Assembly: GCA_035048495.1 (NCBI GenBank)
Contig: CM068548.1
Location: 6,809,464-6,873,463, forward strand
DNA: 64,000 nt
Origin: Euptelea pleiosperma
Taxonomy: Eukaryota > Streptophyta > Magnoliopsida > Ranunculales > Eupteleaceae
Direction of reading: 5' to 3'
Within the stretch, counting starts at the first letter, position 1. Each line of letters begins with the position of its first letter. The notes below the pieces were generated by a model that saw only the letters and a program-made list of their open reading frames with translations, did not search any database and had not been told where the DNA came from. Positions 2,555-28,882 of the stretch are shown here, piece after piece. The position numbers and the translations under genes are program-made.

Positions 2555-3381
2555 GTGGATAATCCTCACATTCACACCACACAAATTACAAAGAAAATCT
2601 AAGGGACCACGATGCTAAAGGACGTTACTATCCTCTTCCAAATCGGATTGCTAACCATGCCCGAAGGCAAAAACATGTTTTAAACAAGAGTTGATAGTGA
2701 AAAGCTAAAAGCTAGGTTACTCGAGTACGACTGAGACATCGCTAGAATATGTCATGGACACGGCATTTCATCCTAGAAATGTTTCTTGCTAAATGTACAT
2801 AAATTTGTTTTTCTAGATCAATAAATCCTTTTTTCTAGAAAACTTTCCCTTGCCATACAGGGCCTTAATTATTAATTCTTACTGTTAAAATGCAAGTGTC
2901 GGTTAAAATAATCGTAACTAGATGCTTGCTTTTTTGCGGATATATAAGAAAAAAAAATTCCACACTTTCCGAACGACATATAGTACGCGTGCTCAGGAAT
3001 CCATATAAGCTAAGGCAGTGTTTGGTAGCATGTCTTTATCCGAAGACGTTAAGGTGCGTCGGGTACAGCCATCAATATCAGCAAATGTGGTACCCATCGA
3101 TAATACAATACTATTATGTAATGGTCCGAGATGGCATGCAGTCCATAGGAGCTCCATCCTCGGGTATTGAGGTCGTGGTTCCTTCAAGGTGTTTGGCATT
3201 TCTACTAAAATTATATTTTGAATATAAGGGCATTTTTGGTAAGTCATTTTGTAGGCAAATCCAAATATTTGCCCTCGCAAATCACATTTTCTTGTGTTTA
3301 ATGTGCAATTTTCTCAAGAAAATATTTATCTGGGCCTACTTGAACCATGAATGTTGGGACGTACCCCTCGTATATCTAAAT
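2555..3381 (+). repeat. Dispersed segmental repeat, copy 1
   Basis: Starts near 'cacaccacacaaattacaaag' and carries 'caaaaacatgttttaaac', 'aagagttgatagtg' and 'tagtacgcgtgct'. The same landmarks appear in the same order at 3470-4484 and 6829-8296. Part of it (3075-3320) also recurs at 20419-20680. Non-coding; probably an old DNA transposon or a duplicated block. Confidence 0.6.
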
Positions 3382-3447
3382 GAGGGATTGGCCAAACATC
3401 CATATGGTCAGCTTTAATGACCGTTGGCGGTCAGCAAAGTTTTACTC
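3382..3447. mobile_element. MITE family A, right half only
   Basis: Contains the right arm 'ggccaaacatccatatgg' and the inverted end 'caaagttttactc' without a left arm. Truncated copy. Confidence 0.55.
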
Positions 3448-3469
3448 CACCATCCCTATTATTGTTGAT

Positions 3470-4484
3470 GGATACGGACCATGATTCTAAAGGACGTGAC
3501 TAACGTTTTCCAAATTAGATTACTGACCTTGCAAGAAGGCAAAAACATGTTTTAAACAAGAGTTGATGGTGAAAAGCAAAAAGCTAGGTTACCCGAGTAC
3601 GATTGAGACATCACTAGAATATGTCATGGACATAGAATTTAAAATGGAGCTAGAAATCATGGTTTGAGTAACAACAGTACATAACCGCTGTTATAACGGT
3701 TACATCCTTTTACCATTACTATTATTTTACAGTTATTTATTGTTAGGCCTAGTATGTTGCCCTTAAAAAGTTCCCTAGAAATAATTCTTGCTAAATGGAC
3801 ATAATTTTTTTTTTCTAGATCAACACATTTTAACATTTAAATCATTTTTTCTCAAAAACTTTCCCTTGCCATACGGGCCCTTAATTACTAATTCTTACTA
3901 TTAAAATGCAAGTGTCTGTTAAAATAATGGTCACTGATGTATGCTGTTAAGATGCTATGACAGTCCCTTTCTAATCATGCTTTTTTTTATTTTTGTGGAT
4001 ACAGAAGAAAAAAATTCAACACACTTTCCAAATTGCACATAGTACGCGTGCTTAGGAATCCATACAAGCCAAGGCTGTGTTTGGTAGCATGTCTTTATCC
4101 GACGACGTGCATCTTGAAGGTGCATCTTATAGATTTTTTATAGAAAACCTTTTTTCAACCATGAATCTAAAGTTATGGACAAAAACAAACTGAAACTGAG
4201 ATTTTGTTTTGAGGGTCCAATTTCATCTTTCAAACCTACCTGCATTTTAATCTATATAAATAACAAATAAGATTCAAACCTAAGGCTCTGTATGGTTGCC
4301 TTGAATAAGTTTTCTAGAAATGATTTTTGCATATATATTCCTACTTTAAAGCCAAAGCTTGGGTTGTCACATGATTTTTACTGCAACGTTCACATGATGT
4401 TCACCTAGGAAACTATGCCCGTAAAAAAAAAACATATACGCACTTATTAGTTTATTAAATGTGCTTCTCCATCAAAAACCTATG
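3470..4484 (+). repeat. Dispersed segmental repeat, copy 2
   Basis: Same ordered landmarks as 2555-3381. It extends further, through 'aacctaaggctctgtatgg' (4280) and 'cgttcacatgatgttcacc', which are shared with the copy at 6829-8296. Confidence 0.6.
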
Positions 4485-4670
4485 ATAGGTTTCATAGTTT
4501 CAATTGAGTTATAACTCCTAATTGTAGTAGAATTCATTTTAGTCGCACCCCACAAAATGTGAGGGCATCCGACCTGTTGAGAGCAACCCACTAAGATTAT
4601 CGAAGTTTATGAGAGTGGGGGGATCTGCCTCCCTGGTCAAAGCACTCAACTATTTTCAAAGTTTTTGATT

Positions 4671-4954
4671 TAGGGGGCGTTTGGGAACGAGAAGTAAAAG
4701 CACTTCTACTTGTAGTAGAAGTTATAAGTTGATTTTTTACCTCCAAAAAATAGAAATTCAAATGTCAGGAGGGATTCTAATTTTCGAGAAGTTATTTCTC
4801 TTAGAAGTCAAAAGCTAAAAATTTTAGCTTCAGTTTTAAGTTAATTTTTAACTTTCAAAAGTTAAAATATAAAACACATCCAAACTAACTTTTTAACTTT
4901 TTGACTTATAAAAGTCAATAAGTTACTTATTTTTGTGTTGCCAAACGCCCCCTA
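4671..4954. mobile_element. MITE with GGGGGCGTTTGG terminal inverted repeats
   Basis: Left end TAGGGGGCGTTTGG and right end CCAAACGCCCCCTA are inverted repeats. The 284-bp unit is A/T-rich with repeated 'agaagtta' and 'aaaagtta' motifs, typical of non-autonomous hAT- or Harbinger-like MITEs. No clear target duplication is seen. A second, interrupted copy lies at 42746-43647. Confidence 0.75.
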
Positions 4955-4997
4955 GATGGCCATTACAGCACGATCCAAACGGGCACTATAGCAAATC

Positions 4998-5396
4998 AGT
5001 AAAACTTGTCACAACGGCTTGTGACCGAAGCCGATCACCGCCTACAATATGAGCCACATAGCTGACTATTAGAGGGCGCTGACCGTATGGATGTTTGGCC
5101 AGTCCCACGGTGGACCTGCAAACAAAAAATCAGCCTGATTAGTGATTTACAATGTTATGGATCTTTGCACCCAAATAACGCTCAATAATGCTCAAATTTC
5201 TACGGTGAAATCAACCCGTGAAAATGACTTCAATTCAACGCTTAGAATTCACCAATAAGGCTGATTTTTGGTTTGCAGATCCACCGAGGGACTGGCCAAA
5301 CATCCATACGGTCAGCGTCCACTAAGAGCGTGCCACGTGGCTCTTATTGTGGGTTGTGACCGGCTTTCATAAGCCCGTTGTGACAGAAGTTTTACT
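4998..5396. mobile_element. MITE family A, complete foldback copy
   Basis: The ends AGTAAAACTTGTCACAACG and the inverted 'cgttgtgacagaagttttac' match closely. Both arms carry the family core with 'ggatgtttggccagtccc' on the left and 'gggactggccaaacatcc' on the right. This is one of the best preserved copies. Confidence 0.8.
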
Positions 5397-6828
5397 CTCT
5401 CACAGTTGGTTTGCAGAGAAAAAGAGAGAAAAGATGAGAGGGTGCGTAAAAAGTATAAAGTTTTCATAAGGGTATTTATGTAATAAAAAAATTAAGTTAA
5501 AAAACAAGGATTTCGAGTGCCCTCACATTTTATGGGGTGCGACTAAAATTACCCTTTGATTTAAGTAGAATTAGGTTTTTCAAAGAGATGGAATTACTTA
5601 CAACTTAGTTTATTACTTATACATCAATTTAACCATACATTATGAAAATAAAATAGTCAATAATGACTCATTATACCCATACAAGATGTATGAACACAAA
5701 TAGATCTTGGGCCAAGCCCACATGGCTTGGATGACCCATATCCATATCTAGATAAGATCACAACATCATATATGATTAGATGACTGTAAATTATAAATTT
5801 TTATCTTTTAAATAACTCCCAAAATACAAGTCAAATTCATCTCAAATAAAGGATCCACCATAAAAACGAATTATCTACATGATGTACCAATAAAATTTCT
5901 ATTCACAAATTTTGAAATTCACGTACTTGGTAAAATTACAAAAATACCCCTAAAAATGAAAATTACTATTCTAATGAACACATAAACTAAAATAAGTAAA
6001 AGTGAGTTGTGAAAAAACTTAATTACCCCGAATAAGCAAAATCATGAAACTACGTACCCTCTCAGAGACAAACTATTTGAAAGCTCTCCTAGGTTATTAA
6101 GTTCACCTAAAAATTTATGGTTATGCTTACAAGGGAGTGAAATTATTAATTTAACCATAGTTATAAAATTATCAAAATGCTCTTTTAAAAAAAATTCTAG
6201 GTACTACAAGCACATGCCTGCACTAAGGTTCACATCAACCTGGGTCTAGAAACTTTGGGTTATTATAGTGTGACGACTATTTGAGGGACTTTTGTATCAA
6301 TATAGAATTATGTATCATAATTTTCATTTGATCAAGGATTTGCTCATTGAAATCCAATGGTTATAATTAATTAATCATGGGTTGGTGTTTTAACTGTAGC
6401 TCCATCTAGGGATGTGCCAAACAACCATACAGTGTATGGACTCTGAGTGTGCCACATGGCTCATATGAACGTTGGTGAGCATCCATGTGCAAAGACGTTC
6501 ATGAGAAAAACTAGACTCATTTCATTCGATGAGCGTTCGGTTATTACAAGTATGTTCTGAATACAAATCTTTAAATTCCTTTCAACCATTTCAAGCGCCT
6601 TTACACAGGTAAGAAATGATTCCATTTTTGCGTATGGACATCTGTATAAGCCCCGTGGGGTGGACCTATATAATCCAAAAGTTAGCCTTATTGGTCTCTA
6701 AGAATGTGCCACATAGCTCATATGGTCGTCTGTGAGCGAGCGATCGTGCTCAAAGATGTTTGTGAGCGAAAATGGACTCGTAAAAAGTGTTTCCACTGAA
6801 TAAAACTTGCAAGTCAATTAACGATATT
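5397..6828. other. A/T-rich intergenic DNA with decayed family-A MITE arms
   Basis: No gene found. Between about 6405 and 6780 there are two degenerate arms with 'gtgccacatggctcatat' and 'gtgccacatagctcatat' that recall family A. The rest (5400-6400) shows no recognisable element. Confidence 0.45.
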
Positions 6829-8898: not shown

Positions 8899-8903
8899 GA
8901 GAC
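8899..8903. repeat. Target site duplication GAGAC, left copy
   Basis: GAGAC abuts the left LTR. The identical pentamer abuts the right LTR at 20114-20118. Five bases is the usual duplication for a Ty3/gypsy integrase. Confidence 0.9.
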
Positions 8904-9880
8904 TGTAGGGAATAAATCCACACACCCCAAAATACGCGCTTTTTCCACGGGCTTGATATCCTTTGTGCTGTTGGATCCGAGGTCCCGGGACAGATCCGAG
9001 GTCAGAGTCCGAGGTATCCGAGGTCAGATTCCGATGTGTCCGAGATCAGATTCCGAGGAGTCCGAGGTGTCCGAGATCAGATTCCGAGGAGTCCGAAGTG
9101 AGGTTCCGAGACCGCCGAGTGATCCTGCAAATAACTCAATGTGGTGGAACTCCACCAAATGAGCCTCCGATGCTTAAGTCAGTCTTCTGAATAAAAGTTA
9201 TAATCCAGCTTCAATCTCCAAAATCGCGTCTTTCATACTGTAGCAAATGCTACTATTTATAGTGTTCAAAACTAGATATTTATGCAGATATTTTATATGG
9301 GCCAGTAAGAACTCACCATGTGTCTTTCGATAATAATTCTTCAAGTCTAAAAGTAATTCCGAGGTTTCCGAGGTTACCGAATATCATATCCGAGACTTCC
9401 GAGGATCCCGAATAAGGTAAATAAGATCAAGTGCCAAAATCAGTCACTAGCACCCGAGGACCCGAGGTCATAATTCATGGACCCGAGGTACCCGAGGTAC
9501 CCGAGGTGAATTCGTCAAGGGATCCAAGGAGTCCGACGTACCCGAGCAATCCGAGGTACCCGAGGTCAACTTGTTGGTGGGATCCGACTAACCCGAGGTA
9601 TCCGAGACCCCGAGGTCAATTTGTCATGGATCCGAGGAGTCCGAGGTACCCGAGGTCAATTTGTCATGGATCCGAGGGGTCCGAGGTACCCGAGGTCAAT
9701 TTGTCATGGATCCGAGGAGCCCGAGGTGCCCGAGGTCAATTTGTCATGGATCCGAGGAGCCCGAGGTGCCCAGTAAAGTTTTTGCAATTCCATGTTTCCG
9801 GCTAACCACGTGTCAGTCGAATCATGTGACACGTGGCACAATCGCATACGTCCACGTGTCAACAGATTTTATCCCCCACA
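8904..9880 (-). repeat. 3' LTR of the Tat element
   Basis: 977 bp, colinear with 19137-20113 at a constant offset of 10,233 with no indels seen. On the minus strand it starts TGTGGGGGATAAA and ends ATTCCCTACA. The plus strand carries many 'ccgaggt' and 'acccgaggt' units (8980-9120 and 9350-9770), a repeat-rich U3 region. A TATA box CTATAAATAG sits at 9253-9262 (minus). Confidence 0.95.
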
Positions 9881-10022
9881 ATCGCCCCTCTTGGAGATGA
9901 CACGTGTCCCACGCACGTGTGCACCGCACGTGTGATGACACGTGTCACCACCAAGAACGTGACGCGTGGTTTTCTCTGCGTCTCTTCGGCTCCTCTGCGC
10001 AGCATTTAATGCTTGCCACGTG
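9807..10022. promoter_or_regulatory. Array of eight CACGTG palindromes (G-box/ABRE core)
   Basis: CACGTG occurs at 9807, 9830, 9853, 9901, 9914, 9927, 9939 and 10017. The first three are spaced 23 bases apart and lie inside the LTR. The next four are spaced 12-13 bases apart and lie just outside it. Most sit in 'cacgtgtc' or 'gacacgtg' contexts. G-box and ABRE cores bind bZIP and bHLH factors in plants. The array lies upstream of the TATA box at 10081. Its LTR part is also present in the 5' LTR (20040, 20063, 20086), so it could serve both promoters. Confidence 0.8.
9881..9892 (-). promoter_or_regulatory. Polypurine tract of the Tat element
   Basis: The minus strand reads AAGAGGGGCGAT directly before the 3' LTR start TGTGGGGG. 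This is the plus-strand DNA primer site used in reverse transcription. It also overlaps the upstream region of the antisense gene. Confidence 0.8.
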
Positions 10023-10080
10023 TCAACCTGCCATTGGTCCGTACACACTGTTTTGTCAGTGTCATCATTACACTGAAGGG

Positions 10081-10090
10081 TATAAATAGG
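10081..10090 (+). promoter_or_regulatory. TATA box of the antisense gene
   Basis: TATAAATAGG sits on the plus strand about 250 bases before the ATG at 10339. It is preceded by a CCATTGG (CCAAT-like, 10031) and the CACGTG array. It is followed by a pyrimidine-rich leader with repeated 'ctctcggct' units (10150-10290). This is a complete plant-type core promoter inside the retrotransposon, directed against gag-pol. Confidence 0.75.
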
Positions 10091-10338
10091 TTGCTCTCGT
10101 CTCATTTTTCATCTTCTGGATTTTCAGTTTCTGTAGCTTCTCATTCTCGGACACGTCGGCTCTCTCGGCTCTCTCGGCTCCCTATTCTTTACATACCTCG
10201 GCACCATCGGATACCTTACTCGGCCCTCTCGGCTTCAATCCTCGGCCCTCTCGGCTCATTGTCTAACACTTCTCGGAGCTCTCGGCTCTCGTAGGTAAGC
10301 TTCTTTTAGTAAATTCCATGTCATCAGTCTCCTAAAAA

Positions 10339-12569
10339 ATGCCAAAAGAATCTTTAAAATCCGTTTTAAAACACGCTGATCCCCAAACTTGGCCTCGTCC
10401 AGACCTAGATGAGATCCGAGCAAAATACCATATACCCGAGTCAATTGAACTTGAGCATGTGCCCAACTCCCTTCTCTATTCCCATCATTCGCTGCCGAAT
10501 CCGAATGTAACATGTTTAACAGTCGGACAACTGCTCTCGGGTATTCCACTTCCGCTTACTCCCTTCGCCCGAGAGCTACTAAATTTCTACAAAGTTGCTC
10601 CGGGTCAGGTGAATGCCAATTTTTGGCGTATGGTACGTTCGTTTGAACGTATTAGGGACATATGGGGCCGAGGTCCTTCCCTTGAGGATGTTCGCCGACA
10701 ACATTTCCTAAAAAAGGTTCCCAAGGAGCGGGGGGAGAATTCAGATATAACTTTCTACTTCTTGGCAACCCGGACCCGAAGACTCCCAATCCTAGAGAGG
10801 ATCCAGGATTGCGATAAATCGTGGCAATGCTACCCTGTGTTCTTATCAGGGGATTGGGAGAGAGGATCCGAGGATGACGCCCCAGGTCTCCTGTATAAAA
10901 GTTTTAATTTTGAAGGTACCCGGGTATTTTTTCAAAAATAAATCATTCTTTTTCTTTCAACAAGTCTCTAATCTCTTTCACAATGTTTTGCAGATGTGAA
11001 TACGGATAGTTCTTTTGCCTTCCCCGAGGATACGCTTCCCCTGTGCTTCGATCTGCGCCGACTTCCTTCTATTATCTATCAACGTCTAGTCGGTCTCAAT
11101 ACTCTCGGCTATTCTCGGCTTTGTGTTGATCCGACGTCCGAGGAGTTGAGCCAAACAATACCTGAGGAAGAATTTCTTCGAAAACTTCCTCTCGGATTCT
11201 CCACCGATCCAGCCCAACCTCGTCAATCGAAGAAAAAGGCTAAGAGGTTAAAACCTCAGGTCTCATCTTCGGATACCCCAGTTCGAGCCGACTCTGAAGC
11301 CACGGAGTCCGAGGTAGTAGACGTTGATCCAATTTCTTATTATATTCCAATCTCATCCGATTCGAGTTCGGTCACTCTCTCTTCTGGATCCAGCTCTTCA
11401 TCTTCATCTTCATCTTTTGACCCTTTTCTTGAAATCGCACAGTCTCTCGGCAGATCATACCGAACCGGATTCCAAGACATGGGACGACTTCAAGCGGATG
11501 TCGGAGCCGACTCTCCCATTCGTCAGAAAAGGAAGAGTTCTGGGCAGGGTTTGCCCCGAGTCACCAAGAAGCCGGCTACAAAAAGTAGGGAAGCTGGTCA
11601 ATCCAGCCAAAACGCCCCGACTCGTGATGAGGCACCTCTGAACTCTGCACCTCCCATTATTATTCTTCCGGGTGCAGATGTTCCTGAGTCGGCGTCTCTG
11701 CCCCAAGAAGCTGAAAAATCCCAAAGCCAGCCTTCCGGGTCCCAGCATGAGCCTGGGAAAGTTGCTCAGAAGGAGGGACGTCACGAACAGGTCCACCAGC
11801 ATAAAGGTCCTGTTTCCAAACCTTCGGATGTCTTCCGGCCCCGACCAGTCCTGAAGTCGGGTAAATCTGTTGTTCTCGGCGATAGCGCCGTAAAGAATGC
11901 ATCGGTGGCTTCTGCCATTGTGGAGCAGATCCGACTCCCTGCTGATATCGATCATTATAATCGGCAAAATGAGGAATCTCTTCTCGGCTCATACTACACT
12001 TCAACCTTCTCCGTAAGTTCAAAAATATTTTTACATATACATTTGTTTCGCCCATCCTCTGTATAACATGTTTGTAATTTCGTTGGTTGCAGAGTATCAA
12101 CTCGGTACATTCGCTGGTGGCTAAGCTCAACAACAAGCTCAAAGCGTCCGAGAATGATCTACACGCCACCCAAGCCCGGAATCGGACCTTGCAAGGTCAA
12201 GTCTCCAAAGCTAAGGACGAGGCGGGGAAAGCTCAAGCTGCTGCCAAGACATCCGAGAATGAAGCTACCCGTCTTCGTCAGGCTTTGGCAGAATCGGAGT
12301 CGGCGCGTCGGGCTCTGGAGAAGATGATGGCCGAGAAGGAGGCCAAATTTGAAGCCGAAAAAGAGGCTCTGGATGCTGCTCTCGCGGCTAAATACCAGAA
12401 TGAAGTTCAAGAATTACTTGCCCCTGTTAATAAAAGGGTCGATCGCCTTCGTGCCGAGCGAGATCGTCTACAAGACATAGTAGACAAGTATGATCTCCCC
12501 GAAGAGGATGACGCGGAGGCCGAGAAGAATCCTGAGGAGGGAGAATTACCCGACTCCGAGAATAAATGA
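10339..12569 (+). CDS. Antisense ORF protein of a Tat element, three exons, 690 aa predicted
   Basis: Proposed exons are 10339-10915, 10994-12012 and 12093-12569. Intron 1 (78 bp) runs from GAAG|GTACCC to TTTTGCAG|AT. Intron 2 (80 bp) runs from CTCC|GTAAGT to GGTTGCAG|AG. Exon lengths of 577, 1019 and 477 nt keep one open frame to a TGA stop. The second and third open frames have no good ATG of their own, which supports splicing. Residues about 30-130 ('TVGQLLSGIPLPLTPFARE', 'YKVAPGQVNANFWRM') resemble the 'putative gypsy type transposon' (Transposase_28-like) domain known from antisense ORFs of Tat elements. The middle is Ser/Pro/Lys-rich and probably disordered. The C-terminal 150 residues form a Lys/Glu/Ala-rich coiled coil ending in an acidic tail. 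Function is unknown; roles proposed for this ORF class are speculative. The frame is intact and has its own promoter. Confidence 0.82.
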
Positions 12570-12794
12570 ACTTCTCTTTTATTTTTATTTTTTGATATGT
12601 AATTAAGATACATTGGGGAGGTTTCGACCTTTTTCCCCTAGGAATTTTCTTCTTTCTTGTTAACTTCAAATATAATCGTTACAATGCTTCATTTGCCATT
12701 TCTTTTTCGCATGATAAAATTGAATCCGACTTATCATTTAATAATTATAATGCTCGTATTTGTAACTTCAAACGCAACTTTGACCAAGAATCAA

Positions 12795-13555
12795 TCCGAA
12801 TCCGACTTCACTTCTAGACGGAACTTCAAATCGGACTCCATTTCTGAAAAACGAGAACTTCAAATCTGGATCCGACTTCATTTCAGAAGTGGACCGAGAA
12901 CTTCAAATCCGGATCGGACTCCATTTCTGAAGTGGACCGGGAACTTCAAATCCGGATCCGACTCCATTTCTGAAGTGGACCAGGAACTTCAAATCTGAAT
13001 CCGACTCCATTTCTGAAGTGGACCGAGAACTTCAAATCCGGATCCGACTCCATTTCTGAAGTGGACCGAGAACTTCAAATCCGGATCCGACTCCATTTCT
13101 GAAGTGGACCAGGAACTTCAATCTGAATCCAACTCCATTTCTGAAGTGGATCAGTACTTCAAATCCGGATCCGACTCCATTTCTGAAGTGGACCAGGAAC
13201 TTCAAATCCGGATCCGACTCCATTTCTGAAGTGGACCGAGAACTTCAAATCCGGATCCGACTCCATTTCTGAAGTGGACCAGGAACTTCAATCTGAATCC
13301 AACTCCATTTCTGAAGTGGATCAGTACTTCAAATCCGGATCCGACTCCATTTCTGAAGTGGACCAGGAACTTCAATCTGAATCCAACTCCATTTCTGAAG
13401 TGGATCAGTACTTCAAATCCGGATCCGACTCCATTTCTGAAGTGGACCAGGAACTTCAATCTGAATCCAACTCCATTTCTGAAGTGGATCAGTACTTCAA
13501 ATCCGGATCCGACTCCATTTCTGAAGTGGACCAGGAACTTAAATCTGACAAATTT
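12795..13555. repeat. Tandem array of about 42-bp units with an 84-bp higher-order repeat
   Basis: The unit is recognised by 'ccatttctgaagtggacc' and 'ttcaaatccggatccgactc', about 43 bp early in the array (13031 to 13074). From 13277 the array switches to an 84-bp dimer (13277, 13361, 13445, 13529) made of a 'ttcaatctgaatccaac' unit and a 'cttcaaatccggatccgac' unit. As 84 is a multiple of three, long frames stay open on both strands (28-residue repeats); I do not regard these as genes. Tandem arrays in the 3' region are typical of Tat elements and can seed satellite DNA. Confidence 0.92.
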
Positions 13556-13616
13556 CAAGAAGTATCCCATCTTTACTGATACACAATCTCTTTACAATCT
13601 GGTCGTAACTAATATC

Positions 13617-16600
13617 TCATTGATAAAATTTCTTCAAATTCATTACATTCCAGGGTTTTTCTATGTACTTTCCCTCCATAGTTTCCAGGTGATAGCTTCC
13701 GGCTTGACCAACCTTCTGAATCAAATACGGTCCTTCCCAATTGGTTGCTAGTTTTCCTGCATTTACTTTTCTTGTATTCTGGAATACTTTTCTCAATACT
13801 AGGTCTCCTTCTTGGAAATTCCTTTCTTTGACTTTCTTTTGATACCATTTTCTTAGTTTTCGATGATAATCTTCTATTCGGACTCGAGCTTGCTCTCTTC
13901 GTTCTTCTGCCATATCAACATCGAAAACCTGAGTTTCGAATCCAGAACCTTCTTCTACCGCTTTGTGACGAGTTGTTGCTACTACCATTTCTGCTGGTAT
14001 TACTGCCTCCATCCCAAATGCTAGGGCAAATGGCGAATCTCCAGTTGACCTTCTTGGTGTAGTCCGATAAGCCCATAAAACACCATCTAGTAATTCTGCC
14101 CATTTCCCTTTGGCTTTCTCGAGTCTCTTCTTCAAGTTTTCTAAAATCACCTTGTTGGTTGCTTCAGCTTGTCCATTACCTTGGGGGTACATGGGAGCGG
14201 AGAACAATTGTTTTATACCGAATTTTTCGCAAAAATAGGCGATTTTACTACCTCGAAACTGTGCCCCATTATCTGAGATAAAAGCATAAGGGAGGCCAAA
14301 CCTGGTGACGATCTTCTCCCACAAGAATTTTTCCACTTCTTCTTCTCGAACTTGTTGTAAAGCCACTGCCTCTACCCATTTTGTGAAATAATCGGTAGCA
14401 ACTAACATGTATTGTTTCTTTCCTGGGGCCATAGGAAGAGGTCCAACTACGTCAAGACCCCATAGTGCAAACGGCCATGGGCTAGCTACTGAGTGTAATT
14501 CTCCAGCAGGAGCATGGATTGTTCGTGCGTGTTTTTGGCATTTTTCGCACTTCTTTGCATACTTCTTTGCATCCTCTTGCATGTAAGGCCAATAGTATCC
14601 TTGAGTCCAAGCTTTATGGGCTAAAGATCTTCCTCCTGAATGATTTCCACATTCTCCTTCATGAATTTCTGCCATGATCTGTTGAGCTTCTGAAGGGGTA
14701 ACACATTTCAACCATGGTCCCCCTGCTGATTTTCGGTATAGCTCGCCCCCAAGTAAACTATATCGCTTGGCCCTTTCTTCAATTCGTCTGGCCACTTTCT
14801 TGTCTGGATCTCGGATTCCATCTCTTATAAATCTTATGATTGGTGTCATCCAGGTGTCATCTTCTTCCGTCTGAGAACATTCTTCCACAAATGAAATGCT
14901 CGGGATGGCTAAAAACTCTATTGAGATAGATCTTCTCTCGGTTTCTCCTAGCATCGCTGCTACATAGGCCAAGGCGTCTGCATGACGATTCTCTCCCCTG
15001 TTTATGTGAAACAACTTTGCATTTTTGAATTTTCTCATAGCCAGTAAAGCTACCTCCAAGTATTTAGCCATCTGTTCATTTTTTGCCGTAAATTCTCCGT
15101 TTACCTGATTTACAACTAGCTGCGAGTCGCTGAAGACTTTCAGTTCTTGTATCTCTAGATTCTCTGCCATTCTCAATCCTGCCAGAAGTGCTTCATATTC
15201 TGCTTCATTGTTCGAGGCCAGAAAACCAAGTCTTATTGCTAGTTCCAGTCTTGTGTTATCAGGTGTAACCAAAATGGCACCTATTCCTGCTCCTGTGCTG
15301 CTGGCTGACCCATCGACGAAGAGCCTCCATCCGCTCTTTTTATCCCATATATCTAAAGGTCCTTCCGATTCTTCTTCAGTTATAATGGGTTCTGGTTCTT
15401 CTTCCCAAAATGGATCTTCTATCGGAAAATCTGCCAGAAAATCGGCGACAGTCTGTCCCTTCTCGGCTGTTCTAGGTCTGTAAGTGATATCGTACTGACC
15501 CAAAGCTACTGCCCATTTTTCCATGCGACCAGACTTTTCAAACTTCGTCAGGATGTTCTTGAGAGGGAGGTTTGTGATAACAATTATTGGGTGAGCTTGG
15601 AAATAAGGTCTTAACCTCTGAGCCGAAAACATTAGAGCCAATCCTGCTTTTTCAATCCTGCTGTAGCGAGTTTCGGCATCCAATAGTGTTTTACTGAGAA
15701 AGTAAACCGGCCTTTCTGCCCCGTCTCTGTCTCGGATTAGTACTGAACTTACTGCAAATTCCGAGACTGAGAGATATAGTAACAAAGGTTCTTCTGCTTC
15801 TGGTTTTGATAAGATGGGAGGCTGTCCGAGATACTCCTTCAAATTCTTAAAAGCTTGCTCACATTCATCTTTCCATTCGAATTTGGCGTGCTTTTTCAGT
15901 AACTGGAATAAAGGTTGACATCGATCCGAGGACTTAGAGATGAATCGATTCAAGGCTGCAATCATTCCAGTTAACTTCTGAACTTGTTTCTTGCTGCATG
16001 GAGATGGCATTTCTTGCAAAGCTCGGATTTGATCGGGATTGGCCTCTATACCTCTTCTGGTGACAAGGTGTCCAAGGAACTTGCCTGATGATACTCCAAA
16101 CGTGCACTTCTCGGGATTTAGCTTCATTTTATACTTTCTCAATACTTGAAAGGTTGATTCTAAATCCCTTAAGTGATCTTCTCGAATCTTGCTTTTTACT
16201 AGCATGTCATCGATATAGACCTCCATTGTTTTTCCGAGTTTGTCCCTGAACATATTCTCTACCAGGCGTTGGTACGTAGCACCCGCATTTTTTAGGCCAA
16301 AGGGCATCCGTTTGAAGCAGAATGTGCCTCGGTCTGTATAAAATGCGGTTTTTTCTTTATCCGATTCGTGCATCAAAATCTGATTGTACCCTGAATATCC
16401 ATCCATAAATGACAGAAGTTCAAATCCGGCTGTCCTGTCAATTAGTTCGTCTATCCGGGGCATGATGTAACTGTCTTTAGGGCAGACTTTATTCAAATCG
16501 GTGAAGTCGATGCAGACTCGAACCTTCCCATTCTTCTTTGGGACTGCTACTATGTTGGCGATCCATTCTGGGCATTGTATTTCTTCAATAATTCCGGCTT

Positions 16601-16934
16601 CAAAAAGTCGGTTGACCTCTTCAGAAACTGCCTGGGCCACCTTTGGGGAGATGCGCCTTAATCTCTGCTTTACTGATTCCGCCCCATGCTTTATGTTCAG
16701 TTGGTGACTTACAATGCTTGGATCAATCCCTGGCATATCCTTCATTGACCAGGCAAATACGTCAGTATTTTCTTTCAAGAATTTCATTATTAATCCTCTT
16801 TCGTCTTGACTCAAGCCAGCGCCCACATAAGTGATTTTCCTTTCTCCTTCCTGCCCGAGCTCTACTGGCTCTATTTCCTCAATGGTTCTTGTTCTTTTCT
16901 CACTCTCACCCTGGAGCGAAATCGCCTGTAATTG
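13617..16934 (-). CDS. pol: Pol polyprotein (RT, RNase H, second RNase H, integrase), entered by stop readthrough
   Basis: 1105 codons follow the UAG at 16937-16935 in the same frame as gag-pro. Numbering from the valine codon at 16826: reverse transcriptase about 40-260 with YIDD at 204-207; first RNase H about 345-430; a second, plant/archaeal-type RNase H about 499-626 (acidic residues near D505, E543, D567, D617); integrase zinc finger H722/H729/C760/C763; catalytic core D792, D852, E888 (35-residue spacing); C-terminal GPY-like motif 'NWEGPYLI'. The dual RNase H is a Tat hallmark. There is no ATG near the start, so Pol is probably made as a Gag-Pro-Pol fusion of about 1813 residues. All catalytic residues I looked for are present and no frameshift is seen. 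Confidence 0.95.
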   Translation of the reverse strand, partial: QLQAISLQGESEKRTRTIEEIEPVELGQEGERKITYVGAGLSQDERGLIMKFLKENTDVFAWSMKDMPGIDPSIVSHQLNIKHGAESVKQRLRRISPKVAQAVSEEVNRLFEAGIIEEIQCPEWIANIVAVPKKNGKVRVCIDFTDLNKVCPKDSYIMPRIDELIDRTAGFELLSFMDGYSGYNQILMHESDKEKTAFYTDRGTFCFKRMPFGLKNAGATYQRLVENMFRDKLGKTMEVYIDDMLVKSKIREDHLRDLESTFQVLRKYKMKLNPEKCTFGVSSGKFLGHLVTRRGIEANPDQIRALQEMPSPCSKKQVQKLTGMIAALNRFISKSSDRCQPLFQLLKKHAKFEWKDECEQAFKNLKEYLGQPPILSKPEAEEPLLLYLSVSEFAVSSVLIRDRDGAERPVYFLSKTLLDAETRYSRIEKAGLALMFSAQRLRPYFQAHPIIVITNLPLKNILTKFEKSGRMEKWAVALGQYDITYRPRTAEKGQTVADFLADFPIEDPFWEEEPEPIITEEESEGPLDIWDKKSGWRLFVDGSASSTGAGIGAILVTPDNTRLELAIRLGFLASNNEAEYEALLAGLRMAENLEIQELKVFSDSQLVVNQVNGEFTAKNEQMAKYLEVALLAMRKFKNAKLFHINRGENRHADALAYVAAMLGETERRSISIEFLAIPSISFVEECSQTEEDDTWMTPIIRFIRDGIRDPDKKVARRIEERAKRYSLLGGELYRKSAGGPWLKCVTPSEAQQIMAEIHEGECGNHSGGRSLAHKAWTQGYYWPYMQEDAKKYAKKCEKCQKHARTIHAPAGELHSVASPWPFALWGLDVVGPLPMAPGKKQYMLVATDYFTKWVEAVALQQVREEEVEKFLWEKIVTRFGLPYAFISDNGAQFRGSKIAYFCEKFGIKQLFSAPMYPQGNGQAEATNKVILENLKKRLEKAKGKWAELLDGVLWAYRTTPRRSTGDSPFALAFGMEAVIPAEMVVATTRHKAVEEGSGFETQVFDVDMAEERREQARVRIEDYHRKLRKWYQKKVKERNFQEGDLVLRKVFQNTRKVNAGKLATNWEGPYLIQKVGQAGSYHLETMEGKYIEKPWNVMNLKKFYQ

Positions 16935-16937
16935 CTA
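16929..16937 (-). promoter_or_regulatory. Leaky stop codon UAG-CAA-UUA between gag-pro and pol
   Basis: On the minus strand the gag-pro frame ends GAC AAA TAG CAA TTA CAG and pol continues in the same frame with 36 open codons before 16826. UAG followed by CARYYA (here CAAUUA) is the strong readthrough context defined for tobacco mosaic virus replicase. Its exact match at the only stop separating gag-pro from pol makes programmed readthrough the simplest model. An intron removing the stop, as in Ogre-type elements, is the alternative, but no good donor is evident just upstream. Confidence 0.85.
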
Positions 16938-19058
16938 TTTGTCAGACGTCCCAATTTCCTCAGGGTTTTCTCTAGGGTTTGACAGTCCCTTTGTCATGGC
17001 TGTTTGGCATTTTTGAGCTGCACTCTGATCTCCGCGTATTTCAAACAGTCCCTGAGAAGTAGGGAATCTGATTGTCTGATAGTAAGTAGATGGTACCGCT
17101 TTCATGCTATGCGTCCATCGTCTACCCAAGATGATGTTATACGAAGATCTGGCATCTACTACCAAGAATCTTGTCATTACTGTGATTGGTCCTGCTGTCA
17201 CAGGTAAGACAATTTCTCCCAAAGGTTCTGAGGCAGCTCCATTAAATCCGTATATCGCTGCTCTTGAAGGTTCTAGAGCGGATAAGCTAATGCCCATATT
17301 ATCGAATGCGGATTTGAACAAAATCTCCACTGAACTTCCGCAATCGATGAGAATTCTTCTAACCGAGAAATTTCCAACTGCTAAGGAAATTACCAAGGCA
17401 TCATTGTGTGGTGCTGAAACCTTCTCCAGGTCTTTATCAGAAAACCAAACTGCCCTGCTGGGGTCGACCCCCTTTATCAATGAACCCTCAACTGGTCTAG
17501 GTTCGGTTGAGACTTCCATTACTTCTTGCATGCTCATGGTTCGCCGGACTTTATCCCGATGAGCACTGTTGGTTTCTGACGGTCCACCATATATCACGTG
17601 AATGATAGTTTTTGGTGGGCCTTCTCCATCCGATGGAGCTTTCTTTGGTTGTTCTTCGACAACCTCTTCTCTGACCCCTGTCTGGACCACGAATTGCGGT
17701 ATTTTTCCTCTATCAACTAGATCTTGGATAAATCCCTGCAAAGCATAGCATCGATCAGTTGCATGGTCCCTTGCCTTGTGATACGCACAATATGGTCTCT
17801 CTGGGCGATCTTCATATGTTCTTCTGGGGGGTCTGTAAAAGGGTCTTCCCCTGATGCTCTCCAAAATTACAGATAGAGATGCTGTCAGGGGAGTATATTC
17901 CCTATTCTGGAATTGCTTCTTCTTCTCTTCTGGTTCCTTTCTTGCAGATTCGGTATTGCTTCTCTTTTCTCCTCGCTTCTCACTGCTTCTCCCAGCTGAA
18001 GTCTTCACTTCTTGTACTTGACTCTTCTGGGCCTCATTCCTGGCCCGAATTGATTCGTCCACTCGGATGTGTTCCTCGATAACTAGATAAGCATCTTCTA
18101 GTTGGGAGAAATTTCGTATCACCAGAGTTTCGTGAGCTCTACTTCCTGCGAGAACCCCGATCTGTAGCGCATATGCGGCAGTTTTCTCGTCCATCTGGTC
18201 TACTAATGTAACCTCCTTCTTGAATCGAGTCAGATAATCTCGTAGAGATTCATTTTCTGTCTGTCGAACACTTAGCAAAGAAGTTACATTTAGCATCTGC
18301 TTTCTCTGGTGATAATAGTGCCGTACGAATGCATCTTCCAAATCTTCGAAGATTTGTATGGAGTCGGGACCAAGGTTGTGAAACCAAGTTAGGGCCGGGC
18401 CTTTAAGACTTGCAGGAAAAAGTCGACATCTTAATCCATCATAGATTGGTGACTCCCAGAGCACCATGAGTTGTTTATAATGTAGCATGTGTTCTACTGG
18501 ATCTGATGATCCGTCGAACATTTCAAATTTTGGCTGTACAAATCTTTTTGGGATCTCCGATCTTAAGATCCCTTCAGAAAATGGCGAAGATCTCAACATC
18601 CTTAGGGCTTCCCTGGATGCTCCAGCTGCCGATTTTTGTCCCACTTCTGGCCTTCTCTCTCTGTCTTTCCTGATCATCTCAGTTACTTTCTCCATAGTGA
18701 CTAAGCGATCAGGGTTGGGCTGCGTTTCCATCTTTTCTGCCGGTTCACGACCGGGTGCATGTGATTCTCTTCTATTAGAGCTGATCTCTAATTCTTTCTT
18801 TCCAACTTCTTCTTCGTGATAATTTTTGCTTGAGTCTCTCTGATAGCCTTCCGAGGCTTGTAATTTTAATGCTTCATTCTCTTTTCTGATCTCCTTCATG
18901 TCTTCTCGCATGGCAGCCATTTCTGCCATTAGCATCTGGGCTATTCTCTCTAAACCCGTCTGAGCTGGGACGTCAGCCTCACTATTCTCTGGCTGAGCCC
19001 TGACGTCCTCATCCACTTCCTTTTCCTTAGAAGCCCCAGGTAATCTTCGCGGAGGCAT
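16935..19058 (-). CDS. gag: Gag-protease polyprotein of the Tat element
   Basis: 707 residues from the ATG at 19058, the first ATG downstream of the PBS. An open extension up to 19181 would start inside the LTR and is not used. Order of parts: charged, coiled-coil-prone N-terminus (about 1-150); retrotransposon Gag core about 169-331 ('GPALTWFHNLGPDSI', 'SLRDYLTRFKKE'); a basic linker; a CCHC-like knuckle at 424-437 with the C-x2-H-x5-H-x4-C spacing usual for Tat Gag; aspartic protease near 572. The protease motif reads LIDCGSS, with Cys where Ser or Thr is usual in D-S/T-G, so its activity should be checked. The protein packages RNA and forms virus-like particles. It ends at the leaky UAG. 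Confidence 0.93.
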   Translation of the reverse strand: MPPRRLPGASKEKEVDEDVRAQPENSEADVPAQTGLERIAQMLMAEMAAMREDMKEIRKENEALKLQASEGYQRDSSKNYHEEEVGKKELEISSNRRESHAPGREPAEKMETQPNPDRLVTMEKVTEMIRKDRERRPEVGQKSAAGASREALRMLRSSPFSEGILRSEIPKRFVQPKFEMFDGSSDPVEHMLHYKQLMVLWESPIYDGLRCRLFPASLKGPALTWFHNLGPDSIQIFEDLEDAFVRHYYHQRKQMLNVTSLLSVRQTENESLRDYLTRFKKEVTLVDQMDEKTAAYALQIGVLAGSRAHETLVIRNFSQLEDAYLVIEEHIRVDESIRARNEAQKSQVQEVKTSAGRSSEKRGEKRSNTESARKEPEEKKKQFQNREYTPLTASLSVILESIRGRPFYRPPRRTYEDRPERPYCAYHKARDHATDRCYALQGFIQDLVDRGKIPQFVVQTGVREEVVEEQPKKAPSDGEGPPKTIIHVIYGGPSETNSAHRDKVRRTMSMQEVMEVSTEPRPVEGSLIKGVDPSRAVWFSDKDLEKVSAPHNDALVISLAVGNFSVRRILIDCGSSVEILFKSAFDNMGISLSALEPSRAAIYGFNGAASEPLGEIVLPVTAGPITVMTRFLVVDARSSYNIILGRRWTHSMKAVPSTYYQTIRFPTSQGLFEIRGDQSAAQKCQTAMTKGLSNPRENPEEIGTSDK

Positions 19059-19113
19059 TCTGAATCCGTCTAAATTAATCAAGCTCTGGAGAGCGCGTAA
19101 GTCTTCTTCGAGT

Positions 19114-19136: not shown

Positions 19137-20113
19137 TGTAGGGAATAAATCCACACACCCCAAAATACGCGCTTTTTCCACGGGCTTGATATCCTTTGTG
19201 CTGTTGGATCCGAGGTCCCGGGACAGATCCGAGGTCAGAGTCCGAGGTATCCGAGGTCAGATTCCGATGTGTCCGAGATCAGATTCCGAGGAGTCCGAGG
19301 TGTCCGAGATCAGATTCCGAGGAGTCCGAAGTGAGGTTCCGAGACCGCCGAGTGATCCTGCAAATAACTCAATGTGGTGGAACTCCACCAAATGAGCCTC
19401 CGATGCTTAAGTCAGTCTTCTGAATAAAAGTTATAATCCAGCTTCAATCTCCAAAATCGCGTCTTTCATACTGTAGCAAATGCTACTATTTATAGTGTTC
19501 AAAACTAGATATTTATGCAGATATTTTATATGGGCCAGTAAGAACTCACCATGTGTCTTTCGATAATAATTCTTCAAGTCTAAAAGTAATTCCGAGGTTT
19601 CCGAGGTTACCGAATATCATATCCGAGACTTCCGAGGATCCCGAATAAGGTAAATAAGATCAAGTGCCAAAATCAGTCACTAGCACCCGAGGACCCGAGG
19701 TCATAATTCATGGACCCGAGGTACCCGAGGTACCCGAGGTGAATTCGTCAAGGGATCCAAGGAGTCCGACGTACCCGAGCAATCCGAGGTACCCGAGGTC
19801 AACTTGTTGGTGGGATCCGACTAACCCGAGGTATCCGAGACCCCGAGGTCAATTTGTCATGGATCCGAGGAGTCCGAGGTACCCGAGGTCAATTTGTCAT
19901 GGATCCGAGGGGTCCGAGGTACCCGAGGTCAATTTGTCATGGATCCGAGGAGCCCGAGGTGCCCGAGGTCAATTTGTCATGGATCCGAGGAGCCCGAGGT
20001 GCCCAGTAAAGTTTTTGCAATTCCATGTTTCCGGCTAACCACGTGTCAGTCGAATCATGTGACACGTGGCACAATCGCATACGTCCACGTGTCAACAGAT
20101 TTTATCCCCCACA
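19137..20113 (-). repeat. 5' LTR of the Tat element
   Basis: 977 bp, read as identical to 8904-9880. Contains the promoter for gag-pol: TATA box at 19486-19495 on the minus strand, with the 'ccgaggt' repeat field and three CACGTG motifs upstream in U3. Confidence 0.95.
19486..19495 (-). promoter_or_regulatory. LTR TATA box
   Basis: CTATAAATAG on the minus strand. It predicts transcription start near 19460, giving a U3 of about 650 bp and an R-U5 of about 320 bp. The same box occurs in the 3' LTR at 9253-9262. Confidence 0.7.
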
Positions 20114-20118
20114 GAGAC
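20114..20118. repeat. Target site duplication GAGAC, right copy
   Basis: Identical to 8899-8903. Confidence 0.9.
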
Positions 20119-21772: not shown

Positions 21773-22225
21773 GAGTAAAACTTCTGTCACAGCGTTCTGA
21801 CAAATGCTTCTGTCAAAATAAAAAATACATGCCACATGGCACACTCTTAGTGGATGCTGACTGTATGGATATTTGGCCAGTCCCTCGGTGGACCTATAAA
21901 CCAAAAATCAGCCTGATTAGTGATTTACAACCTTTGGATCTTTGCACCCAAATAACGCTCAATAATGTTCGAATTCCTACCGTTAAAATCAACACATGAT
22001 AACTTCTAGCCGTTGGATTAAGTATCCCAAAAATATGCTTGAATCCAACGGTTAGATCAATCCTAAAGAAGTGCTTAAATCAATGGCTAGAGAAAACCAA
22101 TCAGACTGATTTTTGGTATGTATAACCACCAAGGGATGGGCTAAACATCCATACGGTCAATGGGCCCCAAAAATGAGCTATGTAGAGCCACGAGAGCCCT
22201 TAGCATCGACTGCATCCCAAGTCCT
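21773..22225. mobile_element. Chimeric MITE: family A left arm joined to family B right arm
   Basis: Starts GAGTAAAACTTCTGTCACA with the family-A core. The right part ('ctgatttttggtatgtata', 'gggccccaaaaatgagct', 'agtcctctgcatct') matches the right part of 33478-33775 instead. It looks like a nested insertion or recombination product. Confidence 0.55.
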
Positions 22226-25002: not shown

Positions 25003-26262
25003 TCATTCCTCACTCTTGTATTCATTTTCAGCATGCGGAAGCATCTTTAGACTAGCAGCCCCTTCCGTTTCTTGTTGAGAAGCAACAGATTTGGAATCCT
25101 CTTTAACTATAACATCTTCTTGTGTTGTTTCTGAAGTCCCATTGATGCTTGAGTTATGACCAGAATCAAAACTAGTTTCACCATCAGCACTTGTGTCAGT
25201 ATTTGCACCATCTGCGTCAGAACCATGGCTGCCTTCATCGGATTTAACTCCCTCTTTTTCAATAATTTTGTCATCAACTGGCATCTTTATGTCATTTCGA
25301 TCGTTGGGTTGAGATGAGTTGGTAAATCCCTCAGATGCCCGGATTGTATTTTCGCCAACTCCAGTCTGATTATCTGAACCCAAAATGGTTACTTGATTCA
25401 GACTTATGGCCTGCTCATCAATTTTTGTCCCATTATGTGTGGAGCTTACAAGTTCCTGACCATCTTGTGGAACCCCATTTTCATCCTGAAAACCATTGGC
25501 ACCATTTCCTGTTTCTCTTTGACCAGGAACAATAGTGCTCTCCTTTTCAATGGGTGGCAATGTTGTTTCCTCTGCACTTCCTTTAGAAAACTCATCCTCA
25601 TCTGAGCCCACTGCTTCATTCCCATTTCTTACTCGATCATTAGTATTATCTTCTGCATTGTTTTGTGGTTCCATTTGTTGTGTTTCTGGCTCCTTTTCAT
25701 CCTCTTTTTCTTCATGATTTGTGACACTTTCCTCTTCATTTTCTTTCGAGTCTTTCTCATCCTTGTCCAAACCAAATGGTTCATCCCCGTCTCTTACTTG
25801 AGTATCGATAATATCTTCTTCATTGCTTTGTGATTCCTTTTGTTGCATTTCTAACTTCTTATCCTCTTTCTCTTCATGATTTCTGATGTTTTCCTGTGAA
25901 TGTTCATGTCCCTTGAGGAAAGACTCTTCTTCGGCCTTCTCTTCTGTATTCCTATCTAACTCATCATCTCCACCCCCTCTGTCTTCTTTCTTTTCCCCTT
26001 CTCCTATGCGATTTCCATCAAACGAGTCCATCTCAACTCCATCACTAGATCCTGTGTTCCCTTTACGTCCTAAATCTATTCTTCCATGTTCATTGCTAAG
26101 CTTGTTTTCCACAGTCCCACCATAACCCTTCCTCTTATCATACGAGTTTTTGATCTGGTAGAGCAACCAGAAGCAAACTGCCAAAAGCAAAGCGAACTGA
26201 AATGCCTGCTTAATCTTAAACCCTTTGGTTCTCTGGTTCCTGCCAACGGATTGGTGAAACAT
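25003..26262 (-). CDS. Acidic single-pass membrane protein, plant-specific, function unknown
   Basis: 419 residues from the ATG at 26262. The start is chosen at MFHQSVGRNQR because a splice acceptor lies just upstream (26277); the open extension to 26358 would be intron. The N-terminus is basic, followed by one hydrophobic segment at about 20-37 (QAFQFALLLAVCFWLLYQI) and a short basic stretch. This suggests a signal-anchor with a long second domain. The remaining 370 residues are very rich in Glu, Asp, Asn, Ser and Lys, with two copies of a block starting NHEEKED (about residues 130-240). It is probably disordered. Similar plant proteins are annotated 'dentin sialophosphoprotein-like' or uncharacterised. 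The open frame despite low complexity argues for a live gene. Confidence 0.85.
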   Translation of the reverse strand: MFHQSVGRNQRTKGFKIKQAFQFALLLAVCFWLLYQIKNSYDKRKGYGGTVENKLSNEHGRIDLGRKGNTGSSDGVEMDSFDGNRIGEGEKKEDRGGGDDELDRNTEEKAEEESFLKGHEHSQENIRNHEEKEDKKLEMQQKESQSNEEDIIDTQVRDGDEPFGLDKDEKDSKENEEESVTNHEEKEDEKEPETQQMEPQNNAEDNTNDRVRNGNEAVGSDEDEFSKGSAEETTLPPIEKESTIVPGQRETGNGANGFQDENGVPQDGQELVSSTHNGTKIDEQAISLNQVTILGSDNQTGVGENTIRASEGFTNSSQPNDRNDIKMPVDDKIIEKEGVKSDEGSHGSDADGANTDTSADGETSFDSGHNSSINGTSETTQEDVIVKEDSKSVASQQETEGAASLKMLPHAENEYKSEE

Positions 26263-26276
26263 CACACTTTGTTCCA

Positions 26277-27659: not shown

Positions 27660-28040
27660 CGCTCACACCATGCTGTGAGCAAAGTTGATCACAGCCGTCA
27701 TTACGAGCCACGTGGAACACTCTTAGTGGATTCTGACCGTATGGATGTTTGGCCAGTCCCTCCCTAGACCTGCAACCCAAAAAACATTCTCATTAGTGAT
27801 TTGCAACCCTTGGATCTTTGTTATCAAATAACGCTCAATAATGCTGAAATTCCTATGGTTAAAATCAACCCATGAAAATAACTTCAATCAACGTTTATAA
27901 ATCACTGATCAGGTTTAGTTTTGGTTTGTAGGTCCACCTAGTGATTGGCCAAACATCCATACGGTCAGAATCCACTAAGAGGGTGCCATGTGGCTCGTAT
28001 TGTGGGATGCGATCGGCTTCGCTCGCAACGGTATAGTCAT
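27660..28040. mobile_element. MITE family A copy
   Basis: The left arm 'ggatgtttggccagtccc' and right arm 'ggccaaacatccatacgg' are inverted. The termini have diverged to 'gctcacaccatgctgtgagc' and 'gcttcgctcgcaac'. Confidence 0.65.
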
Positions 28041-28081
28041 TTTCTCAGTGGGCTTAATGTAACTCATGCAAGAGCATTAAC

Positions 28082-28802: not shown

Positions 28803-28882
28803 GGTTTCCCGAAGGGAAAACTTACAGTAACTGCCCTCTTACTCAATGACGTTAGATCTTGGTCGAGGGGGTAACACAGCAG

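What the first reader, a model, noticed from the sequence alone, without database searches (positions are those of the whole stretch)
10081..12569. Intron-containing antisense gene with its own promoter inside a young Tat retrotransposon
Three open frames on the strand opposite gag-pol join through two canonical plant introns (78 and 80 bp) into one 690-residue frame, preceded by a CCAAT-like motif, a TATA box and a CACGTG array. Antisense ORFs are known in Tat elements, but here the exon phases, intact splice sites and complete core promoter can all be read. Introns can persist because the genomic (sense) RNA carries their reverse complement. A protein with a Transposase_28-like N-terminus and a C-terminal coiled coil could regulate or assist the element; an antisense RNA role is also possible.
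Basis: partly seen in the sequence, partly recalled or inferred. Interest (0 to 1): 0.82.

Follow-up and report, generated by a model that had tools for sequence, protein, structure and literature searches.

The report
Spliced antisense gene inside a retrotransposon
A young plant jumping gene carries, on its opposite strand, what looks like a real three-exon gene with its own start signals whose protein has been kept by natural selection, although what the protein does is still unknown.

Summary
A Ty3/gypsy Tat-type element lies on the minus strand (LTRs 8904-9880 and 19137-20113, identical over 977 bp, target duplication GAGAC). Opposite gag-pol, just inside the 3' LTR, is a three-exon gene: TATA 10081, ATG 10339, exons 10339-10915, 10994-12012, 12093-12569, introns of 78 and 80 bp, 690 aa.

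It is a gene, not chance. In 40 genomic copies both introns keep GT..AG in 40 of 40. Each exon varies mainly at third positions, in exactly the frame that splicing predicts (p 1e-8, 5e-10, 4e-8); introns and flanks show no periodicity. Indels shared by copies: 0 in 2,073 exon bp, 5 in 158 intron bp.

It is old. Families of the same genome with only 45-54% identity in exon 1 keep intron 1 at the same place and, in most assessable loci, the same phase; intron 2 recurs where the fetched DNA reaches it. TATAAATA precedes the gene in 22 of 25 loci under 60% identity (0.07 expected).

Antisense TRP28 genes are known in Retand/Tat elements, own-promoter transcription in Grande. The two-intron structure is not mentioned in the papers I could read. 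Most likely: a spliced, nuclear, coiled-coil accessory protein. No RNA was available; function is inferred.

The parts
8904..9880 (-). 3' LTR of the element (the element reads on the minus strand)
   Evidence: 980 of 981 aligned positions identical to the second LTR, the one difference being a gap just outside the LTR; the 977 bp LTR itself is identical; TG..CA ends; TSD GAGAC at 8899-8903
19137..20113 (-). 5' LTR of the element
   Evidence: TSD GAGAC at 20114-20118
16935..19070 (-). gag-protease frame (the stretch scanned; the open frame runs from 19256)
   Evidence: PF03732 Retrotrans_gag E 8.7e-16; PF13650 protease weak, E 0.0044, below its cut-off
13617..16934 (-). pol frame: RT, RNase H, a second RNase H-like domain, integrase
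   Evidence: PF00078, PF17919/PF17917, PF13456, PF17921, PF00665
9807..10022 (.). array of 8 CACGTG (G-box) sites, 3 inside the LTR and 5 outside
   Evidence: at 9912-9934 the CACGTG core stays in most copies while flanking bases vary; some other sites have lost the core in a few copies
10033..10037 (.). ATTGG (reverse CCAAT), 48 bp upstream of TATA
   Evidence: a CCAAT or ATTGG lies 47-78 bp upstream of the TATA box in several divergent families
10081..10089 (+). TATA box TATAAATAG of the antisense gene
   Evidence: intact in 38 of 40 copies, deleted in 2; TATAAATA in 27 of 30 TRP28 loci, 0.09 expected
10106..10338 (+). probable 5' UTR (start guessed from the TATA box), with an upstream mini-frame ATG 10318-10335 (MSSVS)
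   Evidence: 14.2% informative sites, and 13 shared indels in 9881-10338: not coding
10339..10915 (+). exon 1: ATG and the TRP28 / Transposase_28 domain
   Evidence: PF04195 28.9 bits; informative sites by codon phase 1/1/22
10916..10993 (+). intron 1, 78 nt, phase 1
   Evidence: GT..AG in 40 of 40 copies; same place in divergent families, same phase in most
10994..12012 (+). exon 2: serine-rich linker with two basic, NLS-like clusters (aa 273-279, 371-385)
   Evidence: informative sites by offset 8/50/14, the phase predicted by splicing; basic clusters
12013..12092 (+). intron 2, 80 nt, phase 0
   Evidence: GT..AG in 40 of 40 copies, 7 distinct indel events in 80 bp; also in L044 and L057, donor in L043, L045-L047, L066
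12093..12569 (+). exon 3: coiled-coil-like C-terminus with acidic tail, and TGA stop
   Evidence: informative sites 6/6/34; heptad scan up to 7 of 8 a/d positions hydrophobic; stop at 12567-12569
12830..13548 (.). tandem array (43/84 bp unit) between pol and the antisense gene

Best explanation
The element carries a Pol II gene of its own on the strand opposite gag-pol, between the 3' LTR and the end of pol. It starts from a TATA promoter with G-boxes beside the polypurine tract, is spliced twice by the host, and is translated into a 690-aa protein: an N-terminal TRP28 domain, a serine-rich linker with nuclear-localisation-like clusters, and a C-terminal coiled coil. The introns survive each round of copying because the packaged genomic RNA is the sense strand, in which the splice sites are only present as their complement. 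Most likely mechanism: the protein enters the nucleus, self-associates through the coiled coil, and acts on DNA or chromatin for the element's benefit (expression, escape from silencing, or integration). Shown here, from sequence: gene structure, its age within this genome, and protein-level selection. Inferred: transcription, splicing, nuclear entry, self-association and the benefit.
For: 40 of 40 copies keep both GT..AG pairs. Changes shared by two or more copies: 107 synonymous, 42 replacement, 1 stop, pN/pS 0.13; in exon 1, 23 to 2. Three-base periodicity in all three exons in the frames that splicing predicts, none in promoter, UTR, introns or 3' flank. No shared indel in 2,073 exon bp against 5 in 158 intron bp. 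26 of 40 copies have their first stop at the normal stop codon. In 25 of 31 TRP28 loci with matches to both exons, exon 1 and exon 2 are never contiguous (gaps of 74-152 nt); an automatic scan found a stop-free, frame-matched GT-AG intron in 20 of 24 assessable loci. Intron 2 in divergent families; in L044 it is 79 nt, phase 0, and followed by a lysine/glutamate-rich, coiled-coil-like exon. TATAAATA in 27 of 30 loci. The LTR-end/PPT-like junction lies about 440 bp upstream of the gene in L050, L053-L055, L062 and L067, as in the window. Basic clusters and heptads.
Against: No RNA evidence: transcription and splicing are not shown. 14 of 40 copies no longer have an open full frame, as expected of dead copies. 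Exons do carry indels, but only in single copies: 9 distinct events, 8 of them not multiples of three. Singleton changes show weaker constraint (69 replacement, 9 stop, 71 synonymous; pN/pS 0.35). L071 has an intron 1 open in frame. Some divergent copies have damaged or unclear splice sites: L070 acceptor, L043 stop just before the donor, L053 frame, L045-L047 and L057 donors not the ones expected. TATAAATA is missing in L041, L042 and L061. The LTR/PPT-like junction was found in only 6 of 25 loci under 60% identity by my pattern. All relatives come from one genome; no relative turned up in the protein or viral-contig collections. The single-sequence fold was useless (mean pLDDT 40.1), so no structure supports DNA binding.
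Confidence: 0.8

Rival explanations
1. The antisense transcript works as RNA (for instance by pairing with genomic RNA and feeding small-RNA silencing, or as a brake on copy number), and the open frames are incidental.
For: Vicient and Casacuberta 2020 (PMC7264820, passages read) raise dsRNA regulation by antisense transcripts; the transcript would pair with the genomic RNA over its exons and introns.
Against: Selection is on codons, in three separate frames that only splicing connects; an RNA-only role predicts no third-position bias and no sparing of the exons from shared indels.
Confidence: 0.08
2. Three separate antisense ORFs, or an intron-retaining mRNA, rather than one spliced gene: exon 1 alone makes a 200-aa TRP28 protein.
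For: Exon 1 is open to a stop 26 nt into the intron (201-aa frame). The published survey counted continuous ORFs (PMC11963269). L071 can be read through intron 1.
Against: In the window copy the first in-frame ATG is codon 162 of 339 in exon 2 and codon 78 of 159 in exon 3, yet codon-level constraint is seen over both exons and similarity to divergent families begins at the first residues of exon 2. Splice sites recur over families at about 50% identity while intron-1 sequences are barely alignable (z 0.8-3.3).
Confidence: 0.1
3. A host gene captured recently by this one element family, with no role for the element.
For: Introns and a full promoter look like a host gene taken up as DNA.
Against: The gene, its introns and the TATA box recur in families with 45-54% exon-1 identity, six loci beside the same LTR/PPT-like junction, and all but two of 63 analysed Retand clusters carry an antisense TRP28 domain (PMC11963269). 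Capture as DNA may still be the ancient origin.
Confidence: 0.04

Closest known systems
Antisense TRP28 (PF04195) ORFs of Retand-lineage Tat elements (Vicient 2025, PMC11963269; abstract, passages and the first of two parts of its section 11 read)
   Same: Antisense, between pol and 3' LTR, TRP28 domain, tandem repeats nearby; size of the region (3,736 bp here, 2,933-6,566 there).
   Different: That survey looked for continuous ORFs of 600 bp or more (and shorter ones with TRP28), and its text has no 'intron'; here the TRP28 ORF is exon 1 of a three-exon gene. Its separately listed Smc-type antisense domains could be later exons of the same gene (my inference).
gene23 of maize Grande (Gomez-Orte et al. 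2013; paper not held; known through passages of PMC7264820)
   Same: Antisense accessory gene with its own promoter, protein in the nucleus.
   Different: Introns could not be checked; whether gene23 is spliced is unknown to me. Promoter and localisation are reported from experiment there, only read from sequence here.
Intron of Ogre elements (Steinbauerova et al. 2008; not held; known through a passage of PMC12786077)
   Same: Intron in a plant LTR retrotransposon (that Ogre is Tat-type: PMC6317226).
   Different: There the intron is in the element's own (sense) transcript (position between protease and RT recalled); these two are in the antisense gene, so copying through genomic RNA cannot remove them.
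Antisense gene HBZ of HTLV-1 (named in PMC11963269; that HBZ is spliced and has a leucine zipper is recalled)
   Same: Antisense, nuclear accessory protein of a retroelement.
   Different: No sequence relation tested; the HTLV antisense promoter lies inside the 3' LTR (PMC7264820), this TATA box lies 200 bp outside it.

Membership tests
Retand lineage of Tat Ty3/gypsy elements | Ty3/gypsy domain order gag-PR-RT-RH-INT | tested here: met
   (protease match weak, below its cut-off)
Retand lineage of Tat Ty3/gypsy elements | Long pol-3' LTR region with antisense ORF | tested here: met
   9881-13616, 3,736 bp
Retand lineage of Tat Ty3/gypsy elements | Antisense TRP28 (PF04195) domain | tested here: met
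   exon 1 28.9 bits against cut-off 26.2; whole protein 26.0, just under
Retand lineage of Tat Ty3/gypsy elements | RT phylogeny inside the Retand clade | not tested
   no reference RT set was at hand
Spliceosomal (U2-type) introns | GT-AG ends, plant-like length, frame restored, no coding constraint inside | tested here: met
   plant-like length from general knowledge
Spliceosomal (U2-type) introns | Removed from RNA in vivo | not testable with these tools
   no RNA reads available
Own-promoter antisense accessory genes (Grande gene23 type) | Core promoter outside the LTR | tested here: met
   by sequence only: TATA at 10081, 200 bp outside the LTR end, conserved; activity not shown
Own-promoter antisense accessory genes (Grande gene23 type) | Nuclear protein | not testable with these tools
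   only basic clusters seen

The most novel reading that the evidence does not exclude
The whole Retand/Tat antisense gene is one ancient spliced gene, captured once as DNA with its introns and promoter, and carried through many rounds of reverse transcription because it lies antisense. The TRP28 ORFs and the separate antisense coiled-coil ('Smc'-type) ORFs reported across flowering plants are exons of it, and its protein is a trans-acting nuclear factor of the element, possibly binding the element's own repeats or counteracting silencing.
Probability: 0.4. Interest if true: 0.75.

Novelty: new variant of a known kind. Interest (0 to 1): 0.62.

Why it matters
An intron read in the sense RNA of an LTR retrotransposon is at risk of loss each time the element copies through RNA. 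Here two introns in an antisense gene have outlived divergence to about 50% protein identity, which suggests that the gene was not rebuilt through its own spliced mRNA and argues that it was taken up as DNA. It gives a simple test for an open question (what the antisense ORFs of these abundant plant elements are): published ORF lists may be exon lists, and annotation or RNA mapping that ignores splicing would miss most of the protein, including its coiled coil. It also gives exact junctions that stranded RNA data can confirm or refute.

Tried and rejected
Protein search of the 690-aa model and of an exon-1 alignment in the large protein collection: no relative. Viral contigs: none by exon 1; 42 pattern matches but no confirmed relative with the alignment. 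Solved structures: one chance-level hit (E 0.9), then none. RNA-only role, separate ORFs and recent host capture were considered and set low (see rivals). A genome-wide search for copies with intron 1 precisely removed was asked for 11 times and never answered; what can be said is that none of the 40 copies and none of 25 loci with both flanks matched lacks intron 1. Literature on introns in these antisense genes: searches; Gomez-Orte 2013, Steinbauerova 2011 and Steinbauerova 2008 are not held, so earlier description there is not excluded. Found (sunflower, PMC11728184, passages): nothing on antisense or introns; (maize, PMC3091746, passages): nothing on splicing of Grande antisense RNA. A search on leaky stops in retrotransposons was seen as a listing only.

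Full report
WHAT IS THERE. The element reads on the minus strand. Its LTRs (8904-9880 and 19137-20113) are identical over 977 bp, with TSD GAGAC on both sides, so the insertion is young. gag-protease and pol carry the expected Pfam domains, the protease weakly. Between the end of pol (13617) and the 3' LTR (9880) lie 3,736 bp that hold a tandem array (12830-13548) and, on the plus strand, the gene in question.

IS IT MORE THAN CHANCE. The window's own genome (613 Mb, unnamed plant) gave 108 candidate places for a 1-kb piece, of which the 40 best were scored; I fetched those 40 (the window itself is one of them, L002). They hold 38 distinct gene sequences. Both introns keep GT..AG in 40 of 40; the ATG is intact in 40 of 40 and the TATA box in 38, with 2 deletions. 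Mean divergence from the window copy is 0.99, 1.96 and 2.08% in exons 1-3, 2.85 and 3.36% in the introns, 4.0% in the promoter, 3.7% in the 5' UTR and 2.3% in the 3' flank. Sites at which two or more copies share a variant number 21, 15 and 106 at codon positions 1, 2 and 3, of 691 each. By exon, the excess falls on the position that the spliced model makes the third one: 1/1/22, 8/50/14 (exon 2 begins inside a codon) and 6/6/34, with p 1e-8, 5e-10 and 4e-8; promoter, UTR, both introns and 3' flank show no periodicity (p 0.15 or more). These p-values treat sites as independent, and copies are related; the contrast with the flanks is the safer argument. Introns vary like third positions (17 of 158 against 106 of 691, p 0.17) and more than positions 1 and 2 (36 of 1,382; p 8e-6). 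Indels shared by two or more copies: 0 in 2,073 exon bp, 5 in 158 intron bp (all in intron 2), 13 in 458 upstream bp, 8 in 128 downstream bp; exons carry 9 indel events in single copies, 8 of them frame-breaking. Shared changes: 107 synonymous, 42 replacement, 1 stop (pN/pS 0.13); singletons 71, 69, 9 (0.35). 26 of the 40 copies have their first stop at the normal end. A retained intron 1 would be closed by a stop in 40 of 40 copies, intron 2 in 38 of 40.

HOW OLD IT IS. A search of the genome with PF04195 scored 150 of 347 candidates; the top 30 by score became loci (L041-L070), and L071 was fetched besides. Exon-1 identity to the window is 44-54% in most of them; five are near relatives (73-99%, plus L071), and L041, L042, L068, L069 are more distant (23-32%). 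Some loci are near-identical to each other (L045-L047; L059-L060), so counts are not independent. In the 25 of these 31 loci with matches to both exon 1 and exon 2, the two are separated by 74-152 nt (152 in L061, whose exon-1 match stops early). An automatic scan, on the 24 loci with both anchors, found a frame-matched, stop-free GT-AG intron in 20; for loci under 60% identity 14 of 18. In four of those 14 (L045-L047, L057) the donor picked is not the one that relatives use. Failures: L043 (stop just before the donor), L048 (anchor misplaced), L053 (frame), L070 (acceptor changed). Intron-1 sequences of the distant families hardly align with the window's (z 0.8-3.3, against 6-17 in near families). 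Intron 2 in distant families could be seen where the DNA reached far enough: complete in L044 (79 nt, phase 0, followed by a coiled-coil-like exon) and L057, donor only in L043, L045-L047 and L066. TATAAATA lies 100-400 bp before the projected start in 27 of 30 loci (0.09 expected from Markov simulations), 22 of 25 for those under 60% identity; missing in L041, L042 and L061. In L050, L053-L055, L062 and L067 the same LTR-end/PPT-like junction (CAATCGCCCC) lies about 440 bp before the gene; my pattern did not find it in the other 19 loci under 60% identity (L069 has a similar site). Nei-Gojobori dN/dS of exon 1 is 0.02-0.50 over the 38 pairs with dS between 0.02 and 1.2, among 18 loci with one long match and the window; the loci include broken copies, which raises it.

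WHAT IT DOES. The protein has a TRP28 domain with conserved blocks that run well past the Pfam model (LNFY, IQDxDKxW in 5 of 5 aligned families), basic clusters at aa 273-279 and 371-385, a heptad-like pattern from about 540 to 645 and an acidic tail. A nuclear, self-associating accessory protein is the natural reading, in line with the nuclear Grande gene23 protein (PMC7264820) and predicted DNA binding of TRP28 (PMC11963269). It is inferred, not shown.

WHY THE INTRONS STAY. Genomic RNA is sense; in it the introns are present only as their complement, so reverse transcription restores them. This is reasoning from the known replication cycle. It also suggests that the gene was not acquired as, or rebuilt from, its own spliced mRNA.

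WHAT IS KNOWN AND WHAT IS NEW. Antisense TRP28 ORFs are a hallmark of Retand elements (all but two of 63 analysed clusters; PMC11963269); Transposase_28 was found in 23% of Retand elements in an earlier survey (PMC6317226, passage). Own-promoter antisense transcription is reported for Grande (PMC7264820); that review asks that antisense and spliced transcripts be looked for. The word 'intron' does not occur in the main text of PMC11963269 or PMC7264820. A review of December 2025 (PMC12786077, passages) says that plant LTR elements generally lack introns, naming Ogre and EVADE as exceptions. So a conserved two-intron antisense gene seems undescribed in what I could search, with the caveat that three key papers are not held. 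The survey reports 104 antisense ORFs, 57 with TRP28, and Smc-type domains in some clusters; reading such ORFs as exons of one gene is my inference and is testable.

Noticed in passing
window 16935-16937 (minus strand): gag-protease and pol lie in one frame, parted by a single TAG followed by CAATTA (AAA TAG CAA TTA). This is the tobamovirus-type leaky-stop context (recalled, from no call), which could give a Gag-Pol fusion by read-through.
   Followed up: partly
L071 (G000:C6:14368424-14370924): A 90%-identical copy whose intron 1 happens to be open in frame, giving a 576-aa open frame in the genome scan; exon 1 of the same copy has a stop at codon 18.
   Followed up: yes
window 12830-13548: 43/84-bp tandem array between pol and the antisense gene, 17 or 8.5 copies, 87-93% matches.
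   Followed up: no
window 9609-9771 and 19842-20004: 40-bp tandem repeats, 4 copies, inside the LTRs.
   Followed up: no
window 9807-9858: Three of the eight CACGTG sites lie in the LTR, so the same sites also stand at the start of the identical 5' LTR and could tie sense and antisense transcription together.
   Followed up: no
window 5009-5366, 21787-21944, 27663-29265: A dispersed family of repeats of about 120-210 bp in direct and inverted pairs, MITE-like.
   Followed up: no
window 25003-26391 (minus strand): A 462-aa open frame, rich in acidic residues after an N-terminal hydrophobic stretch, without a Pfam match.
   Followed up: no
window 49522-50004: Open frame with a zf-RVT domain, probably a LINE-type remnant.
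   Followed up: no
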